Source: Methyloversatilis universalis EHg5
Lineage (GTDB): Bacteria > Pseudomonadota > Gammaproteobacteria > Burkholderiales > Rhodocyclaceae
Length of the DNA: 64,000 nt
Direction of reading: 5' to 3'
NCBI RefSeq assembly: GCF_000378945.1
Contig: NZ_KB900539.1
Location: 78,168 to 142,167, forward strand
Every line of letters begins with the position of its first letter. The stretch's first letter is position 1. Under the pieces are notes generated by a model, which was not told where the DNA came from, did not search any database, and saw nothing but the letters and a program-made list of their open reading frames with translations. Shown here one piece after another: positions 21,825-30,150 of this stretch. A program made the position numbers and the translations under genes.

Positions 21825-22724
21825 TCAGCGCTTGCCCACCCACATCACGCCGCCGATCACCAGCACGGTGCCGGCGATCTGCAGCGCGGACACCGGCTCG
21901 GCCAGCATCCACCAGGCGAGGAACACGGTGATGACCGGCCCGGTGCTGCCGACCAGCGCCGCGGTCTGCGCCCCCATGCGGCGGATCGCCGCCGACTGCA
22001 GGAAGACCGGCAGCACGGTCGAGAACACGGCCATTGCCACCGCCAGCCACAGCACCGGTGCAGGCTGGGCCAGCGCGTCAAACGGGCGTACCGCGACGAA
22101 ATGCAGCATGACCGCGACGGTGGATACCAGCGTGGCGAGCGCCGAGAAGCGGGTGGCGCCCAGCTTGCGTATCGGCGCCGCGGCGCCGGTCAGGTAGAGG
22201 GCGAAGCTGAGCGACGAGCCGAACACCAGCGCGCAGCCGAGCGCGATCAGCGCGCCGTCGCCGCTCACTTCGATGTCGTGCACCACCGCCAGCGCGATGC
22301 CGCTGTAGCACAGCAGGCTGGCCACGGTTTCACGCCGGCTGATGCGCCGGCCGTGGGCGATCCAGCCGATCAGCAGCGTGAGGGTCGGGTAGGTGAACAG
22401 CACCAGCCGCTCCAGCCCGGCCGAAATGTACTGCAGGCCGTAGAAATCCAGCATGCTGGCGCCGTAGTAGCCGAACAGGCCGAGCACGGTGACGGTGGCC
22501 CAGTCGCGCGCGGTGAGCGGCTGGCCGCGCCGTGCCTCGTGCCAGGCCACCACCGCGAAGACCGGCGCGGCCAGCAGCATGCGCAGCGCGACCAGGGTGA
22601 CCGGGTCGACGCCGTGCGGGTAGGCCAGCTTGGCCAGAATCGCCTTCAGCGAAAAGCCGGCCGACGCGATGACCGCCAGCCAGACGCCGAAGCGGGCGTC
22701 GCTGCTGCCGTTCGGTGCAGCCAC
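21825..22724 (-). CDS. DMT-superfamily (EamA) transporter
   Basis: This 299-residue integral membrane protein has about ten helices arranged as two EamA repeats. The second repeat ends PVSALQIAGTVLVIGGVMWVGKR, typical of drug/metabolite transporters. The substrate cannot be read from sequence. The GTG start shares one base with the TAG stop of the HerA-like gene upstream, so they are co-transcribed. Confidence 0.92.
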   Translation of the reverse strand: MAAPNGSSDARFGVWLAVIASAGFSLKAILAKLAYPHGVDPVTLVALRMLLAAPVFAVVAWHEARRGQPLTARDWATVTVLGLFGYYGASMLDFYGLQYISAGLERLVLFTYPTLTLLIGWIAHGRRISRRETVASLLCYSGIALAVVHDIEVSGDGALIALGCALVFGSSLSFALYLTGAAAPIRKLGATRFSALATLVSTVAVMLHFVAVRPFDALAQPAPVLWLAVAMAVFSTVLPVFLQSAAIRRMGAQTAALVGSTGPVITVFLAWWMLAEPVSALQIAGTVLVIGGVMWVGKR

Positions 22725-24265
22725 TACCGTCGTCGTCCGCCGAGGATGGAGCCGAGCACGCCGCGCACGATTTCGCGGCCGACCGAACTGGCAATGGTGC
22801 GTGCCACCGTCTTCGCGGCGGTCTGGGCCAGGCCGTCGCGCTGGCCGCCACGCGGGCCGGTGGAGCCGAACACCAGATCCTGCAGTCCGCCCAGCAGGCC
22901 GCCATCGCCGGCCGGCGCACCGCCGGGGCTCGCACTGCCCGGCACCGATGCCCCGGGCACCGGGCGACCCGTGGCCTGCGGGCTGGCGGCGGTCGAGGCG
23001 GTCAGCACCTCGTAGGCCGATTCGCGGTCCAGCACCTGTTCGTAACGGCCCTGCAGCGGCGAGTGCTGGATCATGGCCCTGCGCTCGTCGGCGGTCAGCG
23101 GGCCGAGGCGGGAGGCGGGCGGCAGCACGAAGGCGCGTTCGACCATGGACGGGCGGCCTTTCTCGTCGAGGAAGGAAATGAGCGCCTCGCCGGTGCCCAG
23201 CTCCAGAATGGCCTGTTCGGCGTCGAATTTCGGGTTCTGCCGCATGGTTTGCGCCGCGGTCTTGACCGCCTTCTGGTCGCGCGGCGTGAATGCGCGCAGC
23301 GCGTGCTGCACCCGGTTGCCGAGCTGGGCCAGCACGGAATCCGGCACGTCCAGCGGGTTCTGGGTCACGAAATACACGCCCACGCCCTTGGAGCGGATCA
23401 GCCGCACCACCTGTTCGATCTTTTCCAGCAGCGCCGGCGGCGCCTCGTTGAACAGCAGGTGGGCCTCGTCGAAGAAGAACACCAGCTTGGGCTTTTCAAC
23501 GTCACCCACTTCCGGCAGCTGTTCGAACAGCTCCGCCAGCAGCCACAGCAGGAAGGTGGAGTAAAGCTTGGGCGAGTTGTACAGGCGGTCGGCGGCCAGG
23601 ATGTTGATGGTGCCGCGGCCGTGCTCGTCGAAGGTCATCAGGTCGGCGATGTCCAGCATGGGCTCGCCGAAGAAGCGGTCCGCACCCTGTTCCTCCAGCT
23701 GCAGCAGGCCGCGCTGTATGGCGCCGATCGAGGCGGTGGAAATGTTGCCGTACTGGGTCTTGAACTGCGCCGCGTTGTCGCCGACGTGCTGCACCAGGGC
23801 GCGCAGATCCTTCATGTCGAGCAGCAGCAGGCCGTGGTCGTCGGCCACCTTGAACACGATGGTGAGCACGCCGGCCTGCGTTTCGTTCAGGCCGAGCAGG
23901 CGGGCCAGCAGCAGCGGGCCCATGTCGCTGACGGTGGCGCGGATCGGGTGACCGGATTCGCCGAACACGTCCCAGAAGCAGACCGGGCTCGGGTAGGGCA
24001 CGAAATCGGTGATGCCCAGCTGGTCCAGCCGCTGCTGCAGCTTGGGGCTGACCGTGCCGGCCGCGCCCATGCCGGACAGATCGCCCTTCACGTCGGCCAT
24101 GAAGACGGGTGTACCGATATAGGAGAAGCGCTCGGCCAGCGACTGCAGCGTCACCGTCTTGCCGGTGCCGGTGGCGCCGGTGATGAGGCCGTGGCGGTTG
24201 GCCATATTGGGCAGCAGGGCGAGCGAGAGGTCGCCGGCGCGGGCGACGTAGAGCGGTTCGGCCAT
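22724..24265 (-). CDS. HerA-like ATPase, DUF853 (YjgR family)
   Basis: This 513-residue P-loop ATPase has Walker A in GATGTGKT (about 30-37), Walker B in [13 protein letters not shown] (about 265-277) and the YjgR-type ending [17 protein letters not shown]. Members resemble HerA/FtsK motors but their cellular role is unsettled. A glycine/proline-rich linker at about 432-460 separates the motor from the short conserved tail. No NurA-like nuclease accompanies it, so a HerA-NurA end-resection role is not supported here. Confidence 0.93.
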
Positions 24266-24349
24266 GGCGTCTGTCCTGTGAGCGGAGATGCGCCGATGCT
24301 ACCAGCGTCGCCGCAGGCAGGCAGTGTGGACAACCGTGGGGTGTACGGC

Positions 24350-25900
24350 TCAGGGGGCGAAGCGGTACTGCGACTTGCCGGCGCGCTTGGCGGCGTACAT
24401 GGCTTCGTCGGCGCGGCGCATCAGCGCATCCGGCCTTGTGCCGGGGGCCTCGGTATAGGCGATGCCGATGCTGGCACCGATCTGCACGGACTGGCCGTCG
24501 CCGACATCGATCGATCGCGCAAGCGTGCCTACGATTTTTGTGGCGATGAAACGGGCGGTGTCCGGGCTTTCAAGCGCGCACAGCACGATGACGAATTCGT
24601 CGCCGCCCAGGCGGGTCACCAGGTCGGTACGCCGCACCACCGATTCGAGTTGGCGCGCAACGCTGCTCAGCACGCGATCGCCTGCTTCGTGGCCGAAAGT
24701 GTCATTGACCTGCTTGAATCCATCCAGATCGAGCAGCATCAACGCCAGTCCGTGGCCATTCAGCGCGTCGATGGCGTTGTTCAGCCGGTGTTCCATGCCT
24801 CGGCGGTTCAGCAGGCCGGTCAACGCGTCACGTTCGGCCATGGCGAGTGCGCGTGCCTCGGCGCGCTTGCGTTCGGTGACGTCGTTGGCAATGCCCTGCA
24901 GCAGCCCGTCCGGGAGTGGATTGAGCACGACGTGCAACCAGAGCACGTTCGATTCGTCGTGTTGCTGCACGCCGAAGTCGGCCGATGTCGGTCTCTGGTC
25001 ACTCAATGCGCGCACCATCAGCGTATCCAGCCGCGACGAGGTGTCGCCCAGCAGATCCCCGAGCAGATAGTTCCGCTCATGGCCTTCACGCTCGGGCAGC
25101 CTCAGTTTTGCGGCCAGCCAGGGATTCCAGTCGTGCAGGCGGCCACCACTATCAACCGTGAAGATGCCGGTTTCGGCGCCTTCGAAAATCAGCCGGAACT
25201 TGCGTTCGGATGACTCGAACTGCGCACGTGCATCGCGCTCGGCATCCAGCACGCGGTCCATTCGCGTGATCAGTGCGTTGATATCTCCTGCCAGCCGGCC
25301 GATTTCGTCGTCGGCGTGGCCGTTCGGCACGGCGACATGTGCGCCTTCGCCGATCTCCAGATGGTGAAGGTCGTCAGACAGCTTCTTGACCGGCCGGGTG
25401 AATACATTGAATACCACCCAGGCTACCGACAGTACAACGAACATCAGCTCGACCAGCAGGATGACGGCGATGAAGCGCGAGTAGGCGCCCGCGTCCTGCG
25501 CGATCTTCGAACCGGCCGGCCATACCCTGAGTTCGCCAACCTGCTGTTCCGGCGCGAAGGGCGAATTCAGTGGGCGGGTGAGTACCGGCAGTCGCATGAC
25601 GCCTGACGTGTCGGTATCTTCGTCGCCGAGAATGGCGAGCACATGATTGCCCTCCGTGATGACGACGCGGCTGACGGCATCGTTGAGCAGCAGGCCGCGT
25701 GCGACTTCGGTGGCCAGCTGTTCGTCGCGTGCGAAAGCCGCAATGCTGGCCGTACGCTCGACGGTGGCCATCAGCTCCGCGAGGTGCTGCTGCATGCGGT
25801 TCCGTTCTTCACGCCCGACCATGACGGTGCTGGCCAGCGCGACCAGCGCGCCAACCAGTGCGCCGAAGAAGAGCATCAGCAGCGTGGTTCGCCACACCAT
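24350..25900 (-). CDS. Membrane diguanylate cyclase (CHASE8-like, HAMP, PAS, GGDEF)
   Basis: The protein starts directly before a transmembrane helix (MVWRTTLLMLFFGALVGALVA). A periplasmic sensor of CHASE8 type (RTASIAAFARDEQLATEVARGLL) follows, then a second helix, HAMP (RPVKKLSDDLHHLEIG), PAS, and GGDEF. The active site RLGGDEFVIV is intact. The inhibitory I-site RxxD (RRTD) lies five residues upstream, so the enzyme should make c-di-GMP with product feedback. There is no EAL domain. The ATG at 25900 gives 516 aa. A frame extends to 26038 over the upstream gene, and a TTG at 25975 is an alternative. It is third in an operon with a barrel protein and a periplasmic protein. Confidence 0.9.
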   Translation of the reverse strand: MVWRTTLLMLFFGALVGALVALASTVMVGREERNRMQQHLAELMATVERTASIAAFARDEQLATEVARGLLLNDAVSRVVITEGNHVLAILGDEDTDTSGVMRLPVLTRPLNSPFAPEQQVGELRVWPAGSKIAQDAGAYSRFIAVILLVELMFVVLSVAWVVFNVFTRPVKKLSDDLHHLEIGEGAHVAVPNGHADDEIGRLAGDINALITRMDRVLDAERDARAQFESSERKFRLIFEGAETGIFTVDSGGRLHDWNPWLAAKLRLPEREGHERNYLLGDLLGDTSSRLDTLMVRALSDQRPTSADFGVQQHDESNVLWLHVVLNPLPDGLLQGIANDVTERKRAEARALAMAERDALTGLLNRRGMEHRLNNAIDALNGHGLALMLLDLDGFKQVNDTFGHEAGDRVLSSVARQLESVVRRTDLVTRLGGDEFVIVLCALESPDTARFIATKIVGTLARSIDVGDGQSVQIGASIGIAYTEAPGTRPDALMRRADEAMYAAKRAGKSQYRFAP

Positions 25901-25964
25901 GCTGGTCCGGATCCGGCGGGGCGATGGTGTTCTGAGATCAGGGGCGACCGGATTGGATGTGCGT

Positions 25965-26399
25965 TCAGTATTCAAGTAGCAGTACCACTCGGACGCGCTT
26001 GTCGACCCGTGTGGCGTCGATATAGCCAATCGTGCCACGTTCGCTGGCTACCCGTCGCAGTACGGATTCCGCATCTTCAATCTGTTCGGGCGGCTGGGTT
26101 CGCCCTGAGAATTTCAACCGCGCCCAGTACGCATTGATCTCGTTCATTTCGCGATTGACCAGTGCCCGGTAGAAATCGGCTCGCAATGATGTGGTGTCCA
26201 GCACGACGGCAGGTGTGCCGGACGGCAGGTGTTTGATGCGGCCGAGAAAAAGATGACTCGTTTCTTCACGGCTCAGGCTGTCCACGCCACTCGATGGGTG
26301 CACGATAACCGCCAGAGTTGCGGCACGGGCGCAGCCGCTTGCCAGCGTCAGCCAGACGGCGACGAGGGCAAGGCAGTGGAAGAAACGCATCCGCGTCAT
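25965..26399 (-). CDS. Small periplasmic phosphate-binding-like protein
   Basis: This 144-residue protein has a signal peptide (cleavage near ASGCARA-A). It continues with ATLAVIVHPSSGVDSLSREETSHLFLGRIKHLPSG, the pattern of one-domain PstS-like proteins. These keep the lobe that opens PstS but are too short for a full binding cleft. The start overlaps the stop of the upstream barrel gene (TGATG), and 65 bp separate it from the cyclase ATG. By context I infer that it modulates the periplasmic sensor of the cyclase. No ABC permease is present. Confidence 0.82.
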   Translation of the reverse strand: MTRMRFFHCLALVAVWLTLASGCARAATLAVIVHPSSGVDSLSREETSHLFLGRIKHLPSGTPAVVLDTTSLRADFYRALVNREMNEINAYWARLKFSGRTQPPEQIEDAESVLRRVASERGTIGYIDATRVDKRVRVVLLLEY

Positions 26400-27616
26400 C
26401 AGAACACGAAGTCCAGCACGACCGAGAAAAGTGTCAGGCTGGTGTCGCGGACCGGCATGCCAGCGGGGGTGATCAGGATGGAAGAGGAGGAGGCGCGCAC
26501 CTTCTCCACCTGCATCTTCAACGCGTAGTTGGTGGCAAAGTCATAGCGCACGCCGGCGCCCAAGGAGCGCTGATTCATGGTGAGCCGGTCCACCACCTGA
26601 TCGTATACCGTTTGCAATGCAGCGGCGGGAGGCGGCAGTGCGAGCGCGCTCTCATCCGGTTCAAAAGAGATGCGTCCCCAGGTCAGATAGGGCTTCCATG
26701 CACCGATGCGATAGCCCGCGACCACGCTCGAACCCCAGCCGGTATAGCGAGGAAACTGCGAGAAGGACTCCCGGGCGAGAATGCCCTGCAGCGACCATGG
26801 ACCACTTTCGTAGCGCGCGCTGACGCCAGCGAAGGTGATGTGGTGCGAGGTCTCTATCTGGGACGCGCGGTACTGCGCCTGAGCCAGAGGTATCGAGGTG
26901 AGCGCGTCGCGCAGTCGCAACAGAGACACGTCGTTGCGCGCGTGGATGTCTGCCCAGGCCGCTTTGAGCGTCAGGGTGTCGTTCGCCCATTCCAGGGTCG
27001 CGCCGAGCGTGGTCGCATCGTCCTGCGTAACCCGCTGACCATACAGGTAGAAGTCTCCGCGAGATTGTCCGCCATACATTTTCAGGCTACCCAGGCCGCC
27101 GGCGACCGGTGTGCGTACCGTCAGGTCGGCGCCGTCAAAGCGGTCCTGAGTCACCACACCGTACACTTCCGCAGGCGGCCGCACTGCCGTGTAGGCGTAG
27201 CCGACATGGCGCGAATCACCCTCAAGATAGATATCCGCGCCCAGCCGGCCCGCGCGCAGTTCCAGCCAGTCCGTCGGTGCATAGCGCAGGAAACCCCAGC
27301 TCAGCATGGGTTTCCAGTCGCCATCGGCGCTCAGGCGACTGACCGCCTGTATCGTGGTCGACCATCGCGGCGTGAAGCTTGCGCTCGCCTGAAGCCCGAT
27401 GCGCGAATCCATCCGAACCCCGAGCTTGTGACCTTCGATGCCGCCGGCCTGTTCCAGGTCGCGCCTGTAAATGACATTTTCCCGGTTGTGGTAGCCGGCT
27501 CCCAGCGTGCCGAACCCGCCGAAGTTCCACAGAGGTTCGGCTGCGTCGTCGCTCGCCGCTGTCGTGGTACCCGCGTAAAGCGTAAGAAGAAGGCTCAAGA
27601 AAATTCTGTTTGTCAT
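26399..27616 (-). CDS. Outer-membrane beta-barrel (porin-like)
   Basis: This 405-residue protein has a signal peptide, MTNRIFLSLLLTLYAGTTTA. Repeated amphipathic strands follow (WNFGGFGTLGAGYHNREN, LELRAGRLGADIYLEGD, VVAGYRIGAWKPYLTWGRISF), ending in the aromatic SVVLDFVF recognised by the Bam complex. Such barrels are annotated as porins but could also be sensors or anchors. The ATG at 27616 is chosen over an upstream frame start because it opens the signal peptide. It is first in a coupled operon with the PstS-like protein and the diguanylate cyclase. Confidence 0.85.
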   Translation of the reverse strand: MTNRIFLSLLLTLYAGTTTAASDDAAEPLWNFGGFGTLGAGYHNRENVIYRRDLEQAGGIEGHKLGVRMDSRIGLQASASFTPRWSTTIQAVSRLSADGDWKPMLSWGFLRYAPTDWLELRAGRLGADIYLEGDSRHVGYAYTAVRPPAEVYGVVTQDRFDGADLTVRTPVAGGLGSLKMYGGQSRGDFYLYGQRVTQDDATTLGATLEWANDTLTLKAAWADIHARNDVSLLRLRDALTSIPLAQAQYRASQIETSHHITFAGVSARYESGPWSLQGILARESFSQFPRYTGWGSSVVAGYRIGAWKPYLTWGRISFEPDESALALPPPAAALQTVYDQVVDRLTMNQRSLGAGVRYDFATNYALKMQVEKVRASSSSILITPAGMPVRDTSLTLFSVVLDFVF

Positions 27617-27752
27617 GAATGCATCCACCTGCCCTAAAAACTGCCGGAAAAATCCCATTCGGAATTAACGGAGCGGTGCGCAACGCACTTGAGCCCGTCA
27701 TCAGCGCTCTCGATTAAAATCGGGTTTCACACATTTCTAACGGAAGTACTCC

Positions 27753-28484
27753 ATGGCCGGTCACTCCAAATGGGCCAACATCCAGCACCGCAAGGGCCGT
27801 CAGGACGAGAAGCGCGGTGCCGCCTTTTCCAAGCTGGCGAAGGAAGTCACCGTCGCTGCCAAGATGGGCGGGGGCGACCCCGGTTTCAATCCGCGTCTGC
27901 GCATGGCCATCGACAAGGCCAAGGCGGTCAACATGCCCAAGGACAAGATCGACAACGCGATCAAGAAGGGCACCGGTGAACTCGAAGGCGTGAGCTACGA
28001 GGAAGTGCGCTACGAGGGCTATGGCATCGGCGGCGCGGCGGTCATGGTGGACTGCCTGACCGACAACCGCACCCGTACTGTGGCTGATGTGCGCCACGCC
28101 TTTTCCAAGTACGGTGGCAACCTCGGCACTGACGGCTCGGTCGCCTTCATGTTCAAGCACTGCGGCCAGTTCATCTTTGCGCCCGGCACCTCCGAGGACG
28201 CGCTGATGGATGCGGCGCTGGAAGCCGGCGCCGAGGACGTGCAGACCAACGAAGACGGCTCGATCGAAGTGCTCAGTTCGCAGGCCGATTTCGTCACGGT
28301 GAAGGATGCGCTGGAAAAGGCGGGTTTCACCGCCGAATTCGCCGAAGTGACGATGAAGCCGCTGAACGAAAGCCCGCTGGCCGGCGACGATGCGGTCCGT
28401 ATGCAGAAACTTCTCGACGTGCTGGACAGTCTGGATGACGTGCAGGAGGTCTATACCACCGCCGTCATGGACGACGCCGAGTAA
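27753..28484 (+). CDS. yebC: YebC/PmpR-family protein
   Basis: This 243-residue protein opens [18 protein letters not shown], the unmistakable YebC start, and ends [17 protein letters not shown]. Family members were described as DNA-binding regulators, and more recent work ties them to translation of difficult (proline-rich) sequences. It is cytoplasmic. GGAAG sits 8 bp before the ATG. It is divergent from the barrel operon, with 136 bp between. Confidence 0.97.
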
Positions 28485-28502
28485 TCCACCCGGAGAACGC
28501 CG

Positions 28503-28820
28503 ATGCTGCTTGCCACCACGCCCACGCTCGAAGGACGCCCGATCCGCCAGTATCACGGCGTGGTGACCGGCGAAGCCATCATCGGCGCCAACATCTTCAA
28601 GGATCTGTTCGCCAGCATACGCAACGTGGTGGGCGGCCGTGCCGGTGCCTACGAAAGCACGCTGGCCGACGCCCGCAGCGCGGCGATGGAGGACATGAGC
28701 GAGGCGGCGGCGAAGCTGGGCGCCAACGCCATCGTCGGCATCGACATCGACTACGAGGTGCTGGGCGCCGACAACGGCATGCTCATGGTCTGTGTCAGCG
28801 GCACCGCGGTCACGGTCTGA
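28503..28820 (+). CDS. YbjQ-family (heavy-metal-binding fold) protein
   Basis: This 105-residue protein carries [29 protein letters not shown] and [23 protein letters not shown], the YbjQ/UPF0145 pattern. The family forms pentameric rings, and the metal-binding label comes from fold similarity. Function is unknown. GGAG precedes the ATG, 18 bp after yebC, so the two may be co-transcribed. Confidence 0.93.
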
Positions 28821-28831
28821 CGCGGCGCAGA

Positions 28832-28859
28832 TTGACTTTCCCGCCCGATTCGCGAGAAT
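28832..28859 (+). promoter_or_regulatory. Candidate promoter for metXW
   Basis: TTGACT at 28832-28837 and GAGAAT at 28854-28859 with a 16-base spacer form a plausible sigma-70 promoter. It would start transcription about 15-20 bases before the riboswitch aptamer. Confidence 0.5.
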
Positions 28860-28880
28860 GGGGCGCAGTTTCAGGGTTTC

Positions 28881-28972
28881 ACGGCGCCGATTTGTCTCAG
28901 CTTGCGGGCGCCCGGGTTTCTACGGCAGCAGTGTTGCCGGACTCCCTTACAAATGCGGCTAAAGCGAGGGCG
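28881..28972 (+). promoter_or_regulatory. SAM-II (SAM-alpha) riboswitch upstream of metX
   Basis: The leader folds as the SAM-II pseudoknot. P1 pairs GGCGCC 28883-28888 with 28907-28912. P2 pairs CTTGC 28901-28905 with GCGAG 28964-28968. Loop 1 ATTTGT (28890-28895) faces ACAAAT (28949-28954) for the triple-helix region, and the hallmark AAATGCGGCTAAAG spans 28951-28964. An extra hairpin (CGGCA/TGCCG, 28923-28939) sits in the long loop. Family members bind S-adenosylmethionine and turn off methionine synthesis genes. An intrinsic terminator follows directly. Confidence 0.85.
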
Positions 28973-29006
28973 AACCCGGTCCTGGCTTTGGTCAACCGGG
29001 TTTTTT
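28973..29006 (+). terminator. Riboswitch-controlled intrinsic terminator before metX
   Basis: AACCCGGT (28973-28980) pairs with ACCGGGTT (28995-29002), followed by six T residues ending 2 bases before the metX ATG. CCGGGTT at 28912-28918 in the aptamer could pair with AACCCGG and act as antiterminator. This fits an OFF switch: SAM stabilises the aptamer, frees the terminator and stops metX transcription. No Shine-Dalgarno is visible between hairpin and ATG. Confidence 0.85.
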
Positions 29007-29007
29007 C

Positions 29008-30150
29008 ATGGCCAACGACATTGCAATTCCTGAAGACAGCGTAGGCATCGTCAGCCCGCTGTGTGCGCGCTTCGATACGCCGCTGACGCTGAAGAGCGGC
29101 GCGGTGCTGCCGGGTTTCGAACTGATGTACGAAACCTATGGCGCACTGAACGCGACCCGCTCCAACGCGGTGCTGGTGTGTCCGGCCCTGTCCGGCCATC
29201 ACCACGCGGCCGGCATCCACGCCGACGCGCCGAAGAACACCGGCTGGTGGGACAACCTGATCGGCCCGGGCAAGCCGCTGGATACCCGCAGGTTCTTCGT
29301 CATCGCGGTGAACAACCTCGGCGGCTGTCATGGCTCGACCGGCCCGATGAGCATCAACCCGGACACCGGCAAGCCCTGGGGCGCCGACTTCCCGGTGGTG
29401 ACGGTGGAAGATTGGGTCGCCGCGCAGGCGCTGCTGGCCGACCGCCTGGGCATCGATTGCTGGGCCGCCATCATCGGTGGCAGCCTGGGTGGCATGCAGG
29501 CGATGAGCTGGTCCATCCATCACCCGTCGCGGGTGCGCAACGCGCTGGTGATCGCCTCCGCGCCCAAGCTCACCGCGCAGAACATCGCGTTCAACGAAGT
29601 GGCCCGTCAGGCCATCATCACCGACCCCGATTTCCACGGCGGCCACTTCTACGAGCACAACACGCTGCCGCGCCGCGGGCTGCGGCTGGCGCGCATGCTG
29701 GGCCACATCACCTATCAGTCGGACGATCTGATGGCCGAGAAATTCGGTCGCCGGCTGCGCGAGGGCGGCCGCAAGTTCAGTTTCGAGGTGGAATTCGAGG
29801 TCGAGTCCTATCTGCGCTACCAGGGCGACAAGTTCGCCGGCAGCTTCGACGCCAATACCTATCTGCTGGCCACTCGCGCGCTGGACTACTTCGACCCGGC
29901 TCACGACGCCGGCGGCGATCTGGCGGCGGCGTTCGCGCCGGCCACCGCCGATTTCCTGCTGGTGTCCTTCTCGACCGACTGGCGCTTCGCGCCGTCGCGC
30001 TCGCGGGAAATCGTCGATGCGCTGATGCGCAACGGCCGCAAGGTGAGCTATGCCGAGATCGAATCGTCGGCCGGCCACGACTCCTTCCTGCTCGACGAGC
30101 CGCACTACCATTCGGTCCTGCGCGCGTATTTCGACAACATCACGGTGTGA
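29008..30150 (+). CDS. metX: Homoserine O-acyltransferase MetX
   Basis: MetX (380 aa) is an alpha/beta-hydrolase that O-acylates homoserine at the start of methionine synthesis. The nucleophile elbow is GGSLGGMQ with S159, the Asp is in [11 protein letters not shown] (about 320) and the His in [11 protein letters not shown] (about 354). Acetyl versus succinyl donor cannot be settled by eye, since many proteobacterial MetX enzymes use succinyl-CoA. It is preceded by the SAM-II riboswitch and terminator and followed 7 bp later by metW. Confidence 0.97.

What the first reader, a model, noticed from the sequence alone, without database searches (positions are those of the whole stretch)
24350..27616. 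Barrel / PstS-like / CHASE8-type diguanylate cyclase operon
An outer-membrane barrel, a short periplasmic binding-like protein and a membrane GGDEF enzyme with intact active and inhibitory sites are joined in one operon, with translational coupling of the first two. The layout parallels YfiBNR (outer-membrane protein, periplasmic regulator, CHASE8 cyclase) but with different outer two proteins, suggesting a distinct envelope- or ligand-sensing c-di-GMP system.
Basis: partly seen in the sequence, partly recalled or inferred. Interest (0 to 1): 0.62.

Follow-up and report, generated by a model that had tools for sequence, protein, structure and literature searches.

The report
VpvABC-type porin, half-PstS, cyclase operon
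Three neighbouring genes make an outer-membrane pore, a small periplasmic binding protein and a membrane enzyme that makes the messenger c-di-GMP; this is a relative of a sensing system already described in the cholera bacterium, and in related bacteria the same pore-and-binder pair sits beside different signalling enzymes.

Summary
The operon is real and the coordinates are exact: porin-like barrel (A), 144-aa PstS-like protein (B), membrane diguanylate cyclase (C). A and B overlap as TGATG; C has intact GGDEF and RxxD sites. The closest known system is not YfiBNR but VpvABC of Vibrio cholerae (porin, periplasmic binding protein, membrane cyclase, same order), described in print with relatives in Beta- and Gammaproteobacteria. 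B is predicted to be a single lobe of PstS (Z 14.4) and shows no kinship to E. coli YfiR. C has a CHASE8-like sensor only below Pfam's cut-off, and a PAS domain that published VpvC lacks. The set recurs: 132 of 177 B genes examined have A directly upstream (a non-random sample), and 92 of 98 downstream signalling proteins share C's sensor region. What follows the sensor varies: cyclase, GGDEF-EAL protein (22 of 32 without an intact GGDEF motif) or histidine kinase. So the window holds a member of a known kind; the extension is that porin, half-PstS and sensor behave as one input unit with exchangeable outputs. No V. cholerae sequence could be compared directly. Ligand and direction of control are unknown.

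The parts
26399..27616 (-). Gene A: porin-like outer-membrane barrel with signal peptide, 405 aa, ending in Phe
   Evidence: ORF with ATG at 27616; Porin_4 in 32 of 42 relatives; weak Chlam_OMP hit in the window's own copy; C-terminal Phe in 131 of 132 A proteins
26397..26401 (-). TGATG overlap of A stop and B start
   Evidence: sequence
25965..26399 (-). Gene B: 144-aa secreted protein, one lobe of a PstS-type binding protein
   Evidence: profile hit to PstS chains; AlphaFold2 pLDDT 90.3; residues 25-144 match PstS chain 1twy_B 101-237, Z 14.4, rmsd 1.9 over 108 residues
24350..25975 (-). Gene C: membrane diguanylate cyclase, 541 aa from TTG 25975 (or 516 aa from ATG 25900)
   Evidence: Pfam GGDEF 5e-45, PAS_8 3.6e-5 over cut-off, HAMP under cut-off
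25253..25912 (-). C input part: TM1, periplasmic CHASE8-like/PAS-like domain, TM2, HAMP
   Evidence: alignment A2, AlphaFold2 pLDDT 89.5, hydropathy peaks at residues 35-53 and 171-189
24851..25213 (-). C: PAS domain between HAMP and GGDEF
   Evidence: NCBIfam sensory_box residues 255-375, 2.4e-8; Pfam PAS_8 259-309
24371..24835 (-). C: GGDEF domain; RxxD about 24634-24623, GGDEF about 24607-24593
   Evidence: Pfam residues 381-535; motifs

Best explanation
A VpvABC-type c-di-GMP sensing operon. A (porin) lets a small ligand through the outer membrane; B, a one-lobed PstS relative, meets the ligand in the periplasm and docks on the periplasmic CHASE8-like sensor of C; the movement passes through TM2, HAMP and PAS to the GGDEF dimer and sets c-di-GMP synthesis, with the RxxD site giving feedback inhibition. 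Shown here by computation: the anatomy, the one-lobe fold prediction of B, the conserved gene set, and that the same sensor region occurs next to A-B in front of cyclase, GGDEF-EAL and histidine-kinase outputs. Inferred: ligand passage through A, B-sensor docking, sign of control. Unknown: the ligand.
For: Gene order and protein kinds equal to VpvABC as printed. Two TM helices at 14-34 and 151-172 in VpvC (PMC12051071) compare with 13-31 and 149-167 in the relative L032 and the same spacing in C. A directly upstream of B in 132 of 177 B genes, and 11 of 11 Undibacterium loci have A-B-cyclase with the shared sensor, Undibacterium being a genus for which the paper reports full vpvABC. 92 of 98 downstream outputs match the window's sensor region at E up to 4.1e-12, among them 10 of the 12 histidine-kinase outputs. 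One copy each of A, B and whole sensor in the host genome, all here. [quoted passage not shown]
Against: No ligand, no interaction and no c-di-GMP measurement in this organism. No V. cholerae VpvA, B or C sequence could be compared. C has a PAS domain that published VpvC lacks (HAMP 174-228 directly followed by GGDEF 230-411). Of 177 B genes 32 have no A beside them and 50 have no signalling gene in the positions examined; in the wider class set A adjoins only 22 of 45. A single lobe may not bind a ligand by itself.
Confidence: 0.62

Rival explanations
1. YfiBNR-like control: B is a periplasmic repressor of C, and an envelope signal through A removes it.
For: Same compartments; remote sensor resemblance to E. 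coli DgcN.
Against: B is a PstS lobe, not YfiR-like; A is a barrel, not an OmpA-like lipoprotein; [quoted passage not shown]
Confidence: 0.17
2. B is a phosphate sensor, so the operon ties inorganic phosphate to c-di-GMP.
For: Nearest solved folds are phosphate-binding proteins; a basic residue at position 73, near the PstS Ser-Gly-Ser/Thr-Arg motif, is Lys or Arg in 61 of 61 rows of A3.
Against: The Ser-Gly of that motif is not kept, and the other lobe, half of the PstS cleft, is absent. That the motif binds phosphate is recalled.
Confidence: 0.12
3. A and B are a small uptake or envelope unit that is only co-transcribed with C.
For: Some loci have A-B without a signalling gene in the positions examined, for example Thauera aminoaromatica.
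Against: No ABC permease was looked for or seen in the classes; sensor sharing between unlike outputs is hard to explain without contact to A or B.
Confidence: 0.09

Closest known systems
VpvABC of Vibrio cholerae (VC2456-VC2454)
   Same: Operon order porin, periplasmic binding protein, membrane diguanylate cyclase; two TM helices, periplasmic part of like size, HAMP, GGDEF.
   Different: The window's C has a PAS domain between HAMP and GGDEF; no direct sequence comparison was possible. V. cholerae control by VpsT, VpsR and RpoS was not looked for here.
YfiBNR / DgcN of Pseudomonas aeruginosa and E. coli
   Same: Outer-membrane protein, periplasmic protein and inner-membrane cyclase with a possibly related sensor.
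   Different: B unrelated to E. coli YfiR, A a porin-like barrel, gene order differs.
LuxP-LuxQ and NspS-MbaA (binding protein plus membrane sensor enzyme; recalled)
   Same: A periplasmic binding protein next to a membrane sensor; the predicted sensor shows weak matches to LuxQ periplasmic domains (E 0.1; Z 7.5).
   Different: Those binding proteins are full two-lobed ones (recalled); B is one lobe, and no porin gene is part of those systems (recalled).

Membership tests
VpvABC | Gene order porin, binding protein, membrane diguanylate cyclase on one strand | tested here: met
VpvABC | A is a porin | tested here: met
   Porin_4 in 32 of 42 members of A4 at E up to 0.1; the window's own copy has only a sub-cut-off Chlam_OMP hit
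VpvABC | B is a periplasmic binding-protein relative | tested here: met
   one lobe only. Whether VpvB is one-lobed is not stated in the passages seen
VpvABC | C is TM, periplasmic part, TM, HAMP, GGDEF, without a further domain | tested here: inconclusive
   All these parts are present but a PAS domain is inserted; published VpvC has HAMP 174-228 and GGDEF 230-411
VpvABC | Sequence homology to V. cholerae VpvA, VpvB and VpvC | not testable with these tools
   No V. cholerae or other chromosome-I Vibrio locus came up; only an indirect bridge through Undibacterium
VpvABC | A and B raise c-di-GMP through C | not testable with these tools
   needs an experiment
YfiBNR | Periplasmic protein is YfiR (DUF4154) | tested here: not met
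   no Pfam hit in B; hhalign probability 1.4% with E. coli YfiR
YfiBNR | Cyclase is DgcN/YfiN with CHASE8 | tested here: not met
   NCBIfam DgcN/YfiN 190.5 bits against cut-off 325; no CHASE8 hit at E up to 1 in the window's C, though relatives hit it under cut-off
PstS | Two-lobed phosphate-binding protein | tested here: not met
   whole mature B matches one lobe; TIGR02136 17.4 bits against cut-off 206.6

The most novel reading that the evidence does not exclude
Porin, half-PstS and CHASE8-like sensor are one portable input device. B supplies half of a binding cleft and the sensor of the enzyme supplies the other half or the docking face, so that ligand is read only in the complex; evolution has plugged this device into cyclases, probable phosphodiesterases and histidine kinases many times. 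The published class 'vpvAB without vpvC' would then partly be the same device with another or a PAS-bearing output.
Probability: 0.3. Interest if true: 0.62.

Novelty: new member of a known kind. Interest (0 to 1): 0.4.

Why it matters
The ligand and mechanism of VpvABC are unknown in the passages seen. This window adds a non-Vibrio member whose nearest named relatives are Methyloversatilis and shows what stays constant: B is one PstS lobe, and the sensor region is kept while the output changes. That gives testable contact surfaces and a way to find the ligand from natural swaps between cyclase, probable phosphodiesterase and kinase outputs. It also qualifies the printed statement that vpvAB often stands without vpvC: Thauera, which the paper names in that class, has A-B-cyclase with the shared sensor in 4 of the 6 loci fetched here.

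Tried and rejected
CHASE8 by Pfam: rejected as a firm label. YfiR kinship of B: none. A riboswitch or other Rfam RNA in 22000-30000: none at gathering score. Sigma-70 promoter-like sites in 24200-27900: 0 found, 0.6 expected; one terminator-like match at the A/B junction against 2.6 expected, taken as chance. A plasmid record with near-identical DNA: none. A profile search of A against solved structures gave only one weak hit (0.015). Papers on a PstS-like protein with a cyclase: zero papers; wider searches gave nothing closer than VpvABC in the listings shown.

Getting a V. cholerae or Vibrio vpvABC locus: the genome-contig scan kept only the best 80 loci, none from Vibrio; plasmid records gave Vibrio chromids with B-A genes in another layout; a marker protein from one such record showed no genome above 67% identity in the class sample or in one order. 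Given up.

Caveats on counts. The 82 named B genes are best hits to the window's family, so they favour its layout; in the family set A is directly upstream in 37 of 45 and downstream in 2, in the class set 14 and 8 of 45; some class loci were picked because B lay in a long frame. One B of 178 was dropped as an identical copy. Invariance of YWxRLxFSG in A3 is partly by construction, since the scan used that pattern; A1, not so chosen, has F76, W92, G99, P104 and Y126 invariant. The tree is a quick one with long branches. Sensor fold matches are in the range where long helices mislead.

Full report
Observation. The window holds, on the minus strand, a 405-aa porin-like gene (A, 27616-26399), a 144-aa secreted protein gene (B, 26399-25965) and a membrane GGDEF gene (C, to 24350). 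A and B overlap as TGATG; the start of C is either TTG 25975, overlapping B, or ATG 25900. Pfam finds GGDEF (5e-45) and PAS_8 (3.6e-5) in C, HAMP below cut-off and no CHASE8; nothing in B; only a weak Chlam_OMP hit in A. The GGDEF motif and an RxxD inhibitory motif are intact.

What the proteins are. A: 32 of 42 relatives match Porin_4 at E up to 0.1 and 131 of 132 A proteins end in Phe, the usual end of outer-membrane barrels (recalled). B: a profile of 31 relatives matches PstS chains (4.3e-7); the predicted structure (pLDDT 90.3) matches one lobe of PstS, residues 101-237 of 1twy_B, Z 14.4, rmsd 1.9 over 108 residues (Foldseek 3.4e-7 to 4exl). The other lobe is absent. The Ser-Gly of the PstS motif Ser-Gly-Ser/Thr-Arg is not kept, while a Lys or Arg stands at position 73 in 61 of 61 rows. 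C: the input part is predicted as TM helix, a helix-plus-four-strand periplasmic domain, TM helix and HAMP (pLDDT 89.5), with matches to WalK and LapD-type periplasmic domains and a remote match to E. coli DgcN (probability 53%, E 1.4e-4).

Conservation. B relatives occur in 33 of 61 genomes of the family and 118 of 369 of the class sample. Of 177 distinct B genes in fetched loci, 132 have A directly upstream, 13 have A directly downstream and 32 have none; 127 have a signalling gene in the positions examined and 50 have none. These loci are not a random sample; per set, A is directly upstream in 80 of 82 named loci, 37 of 45 family loci and 14 of 45 class loci. The nearest named relatives are two Methyloversatilis loci, both with A-B-cyclase.

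Outputs. Of 98 signalling proteins just downstream of B, 92 match residues 1-245 of the window's C at E up to 4.1e-12 (database of 98 sequences), among them 10 of the 12 histidine-kinase outputs. Pfam scans of 10 examples show cyclase, GGDEF-EAL, hybrid histidine kinase and chemoreceptor outputs; some of these have other sensors (CHASE5, dCache, 4HB). Among 94 complete A-B-sensor sets 52 are cyclases, 29 GGDEF-EAL, 10 histidine kinases and 3 other; on a quick tree of B plus sensor the four labels need at least 12 changes (shuffled mean 36.5), histidine kinase alone 8. So outputs are clustered but have been exchanged repeatedly. Cyclase outputs keep GGDEF with RxxD in 51 of 52; GGDEF-EAL outputs keep the EAL motif in 32 of 32 but an intact GGDEF or GGEEF in 10 of 32, which suggests many are phosphodiesterases. 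The space between sensor region and GGDEF is 136-152 residues in 83 of 84, room for a PAS domain, and 19 in one, L032.

Known system. VpvABC of V. cholerae is described as porin, periplasmic binding protein and membrane cyclase, with full operons in genera such as Undibacterium and vpvAB alone in others such as Thauera (PMC12456836, passages and section 14). vpvC is VC2454 and the operon starts at VC2456 (passages). VpvC has TM helices at about 14-34 and 151-172, HAMP 174-228 and GGDEF 230-411 (PMC12051071, section 29 and passages): the window's layout without the PAS. PMC8967002 was seen in passages only. All 11 Undibacterium loci here have A-B-cyclase with the shared sensor; of six Thauera loci, four have it, one lacks C altogether (T. 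aminoaromatica) and one ends too soon. The paper calls vpvAB a conserved sensing unit later linked to vpvC; the words 'histidine kinase' and 'chemoreceptor' do not occur in its main text. I did not see its S5 figure.

Mechanism. Most likely A admits a ligand, B meets it and docks on the sensor of C, and the signal runs through HAMP and PAS to the GGDEF dimer. The gene set, the folds predicted and the shared sensor are computed results; docking, ligand and sign are inferred. [quoted passage not shown] B is not YfiR.

Verdict. A member of a known kind, with a PAS-bearing cyclase. Its value lies in the one-lobe nature of B and in the exchange of outputs behind a constant input unit.

Noticed in passing
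L204, L205, L206, L207, L208: B-type domain at the C-terminus of 443-751 aa proteins with a TM-like segment and long linker (several with a DnaJ-like N-part, by eye), without an A gene beside them.
   Followed up: partly
L128 (Gallionellaceae): Two A-B-(GGDEF-EAL) operons in tandem; one unnamed family genome, G007, holds nine B genes.
   Followed up: no
L068 (Thauera aminoaromatica): A-B kept but no trace of C by tblastn in the locus.
   Followed up: yes
L147, L149, L150 (Vibrio and Photobacterium chromids): B followed by A (reverse order); in L147 a histidine-kinase gene lies upstream.
   Followed up: no
window 22715-25213 (+): An 832-aa open frame antisense to C and the next gene: a high-G+C frame, most likely not a gene.
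   Followed up: no
window 27753-28484 (+) and 22724-24265 (-): Neighbours look like a YebC-type gene (divergent) and a HerA/DUF853-type ATPase gene 84 bases after C; names recalled, not searched.
   Followed up: no
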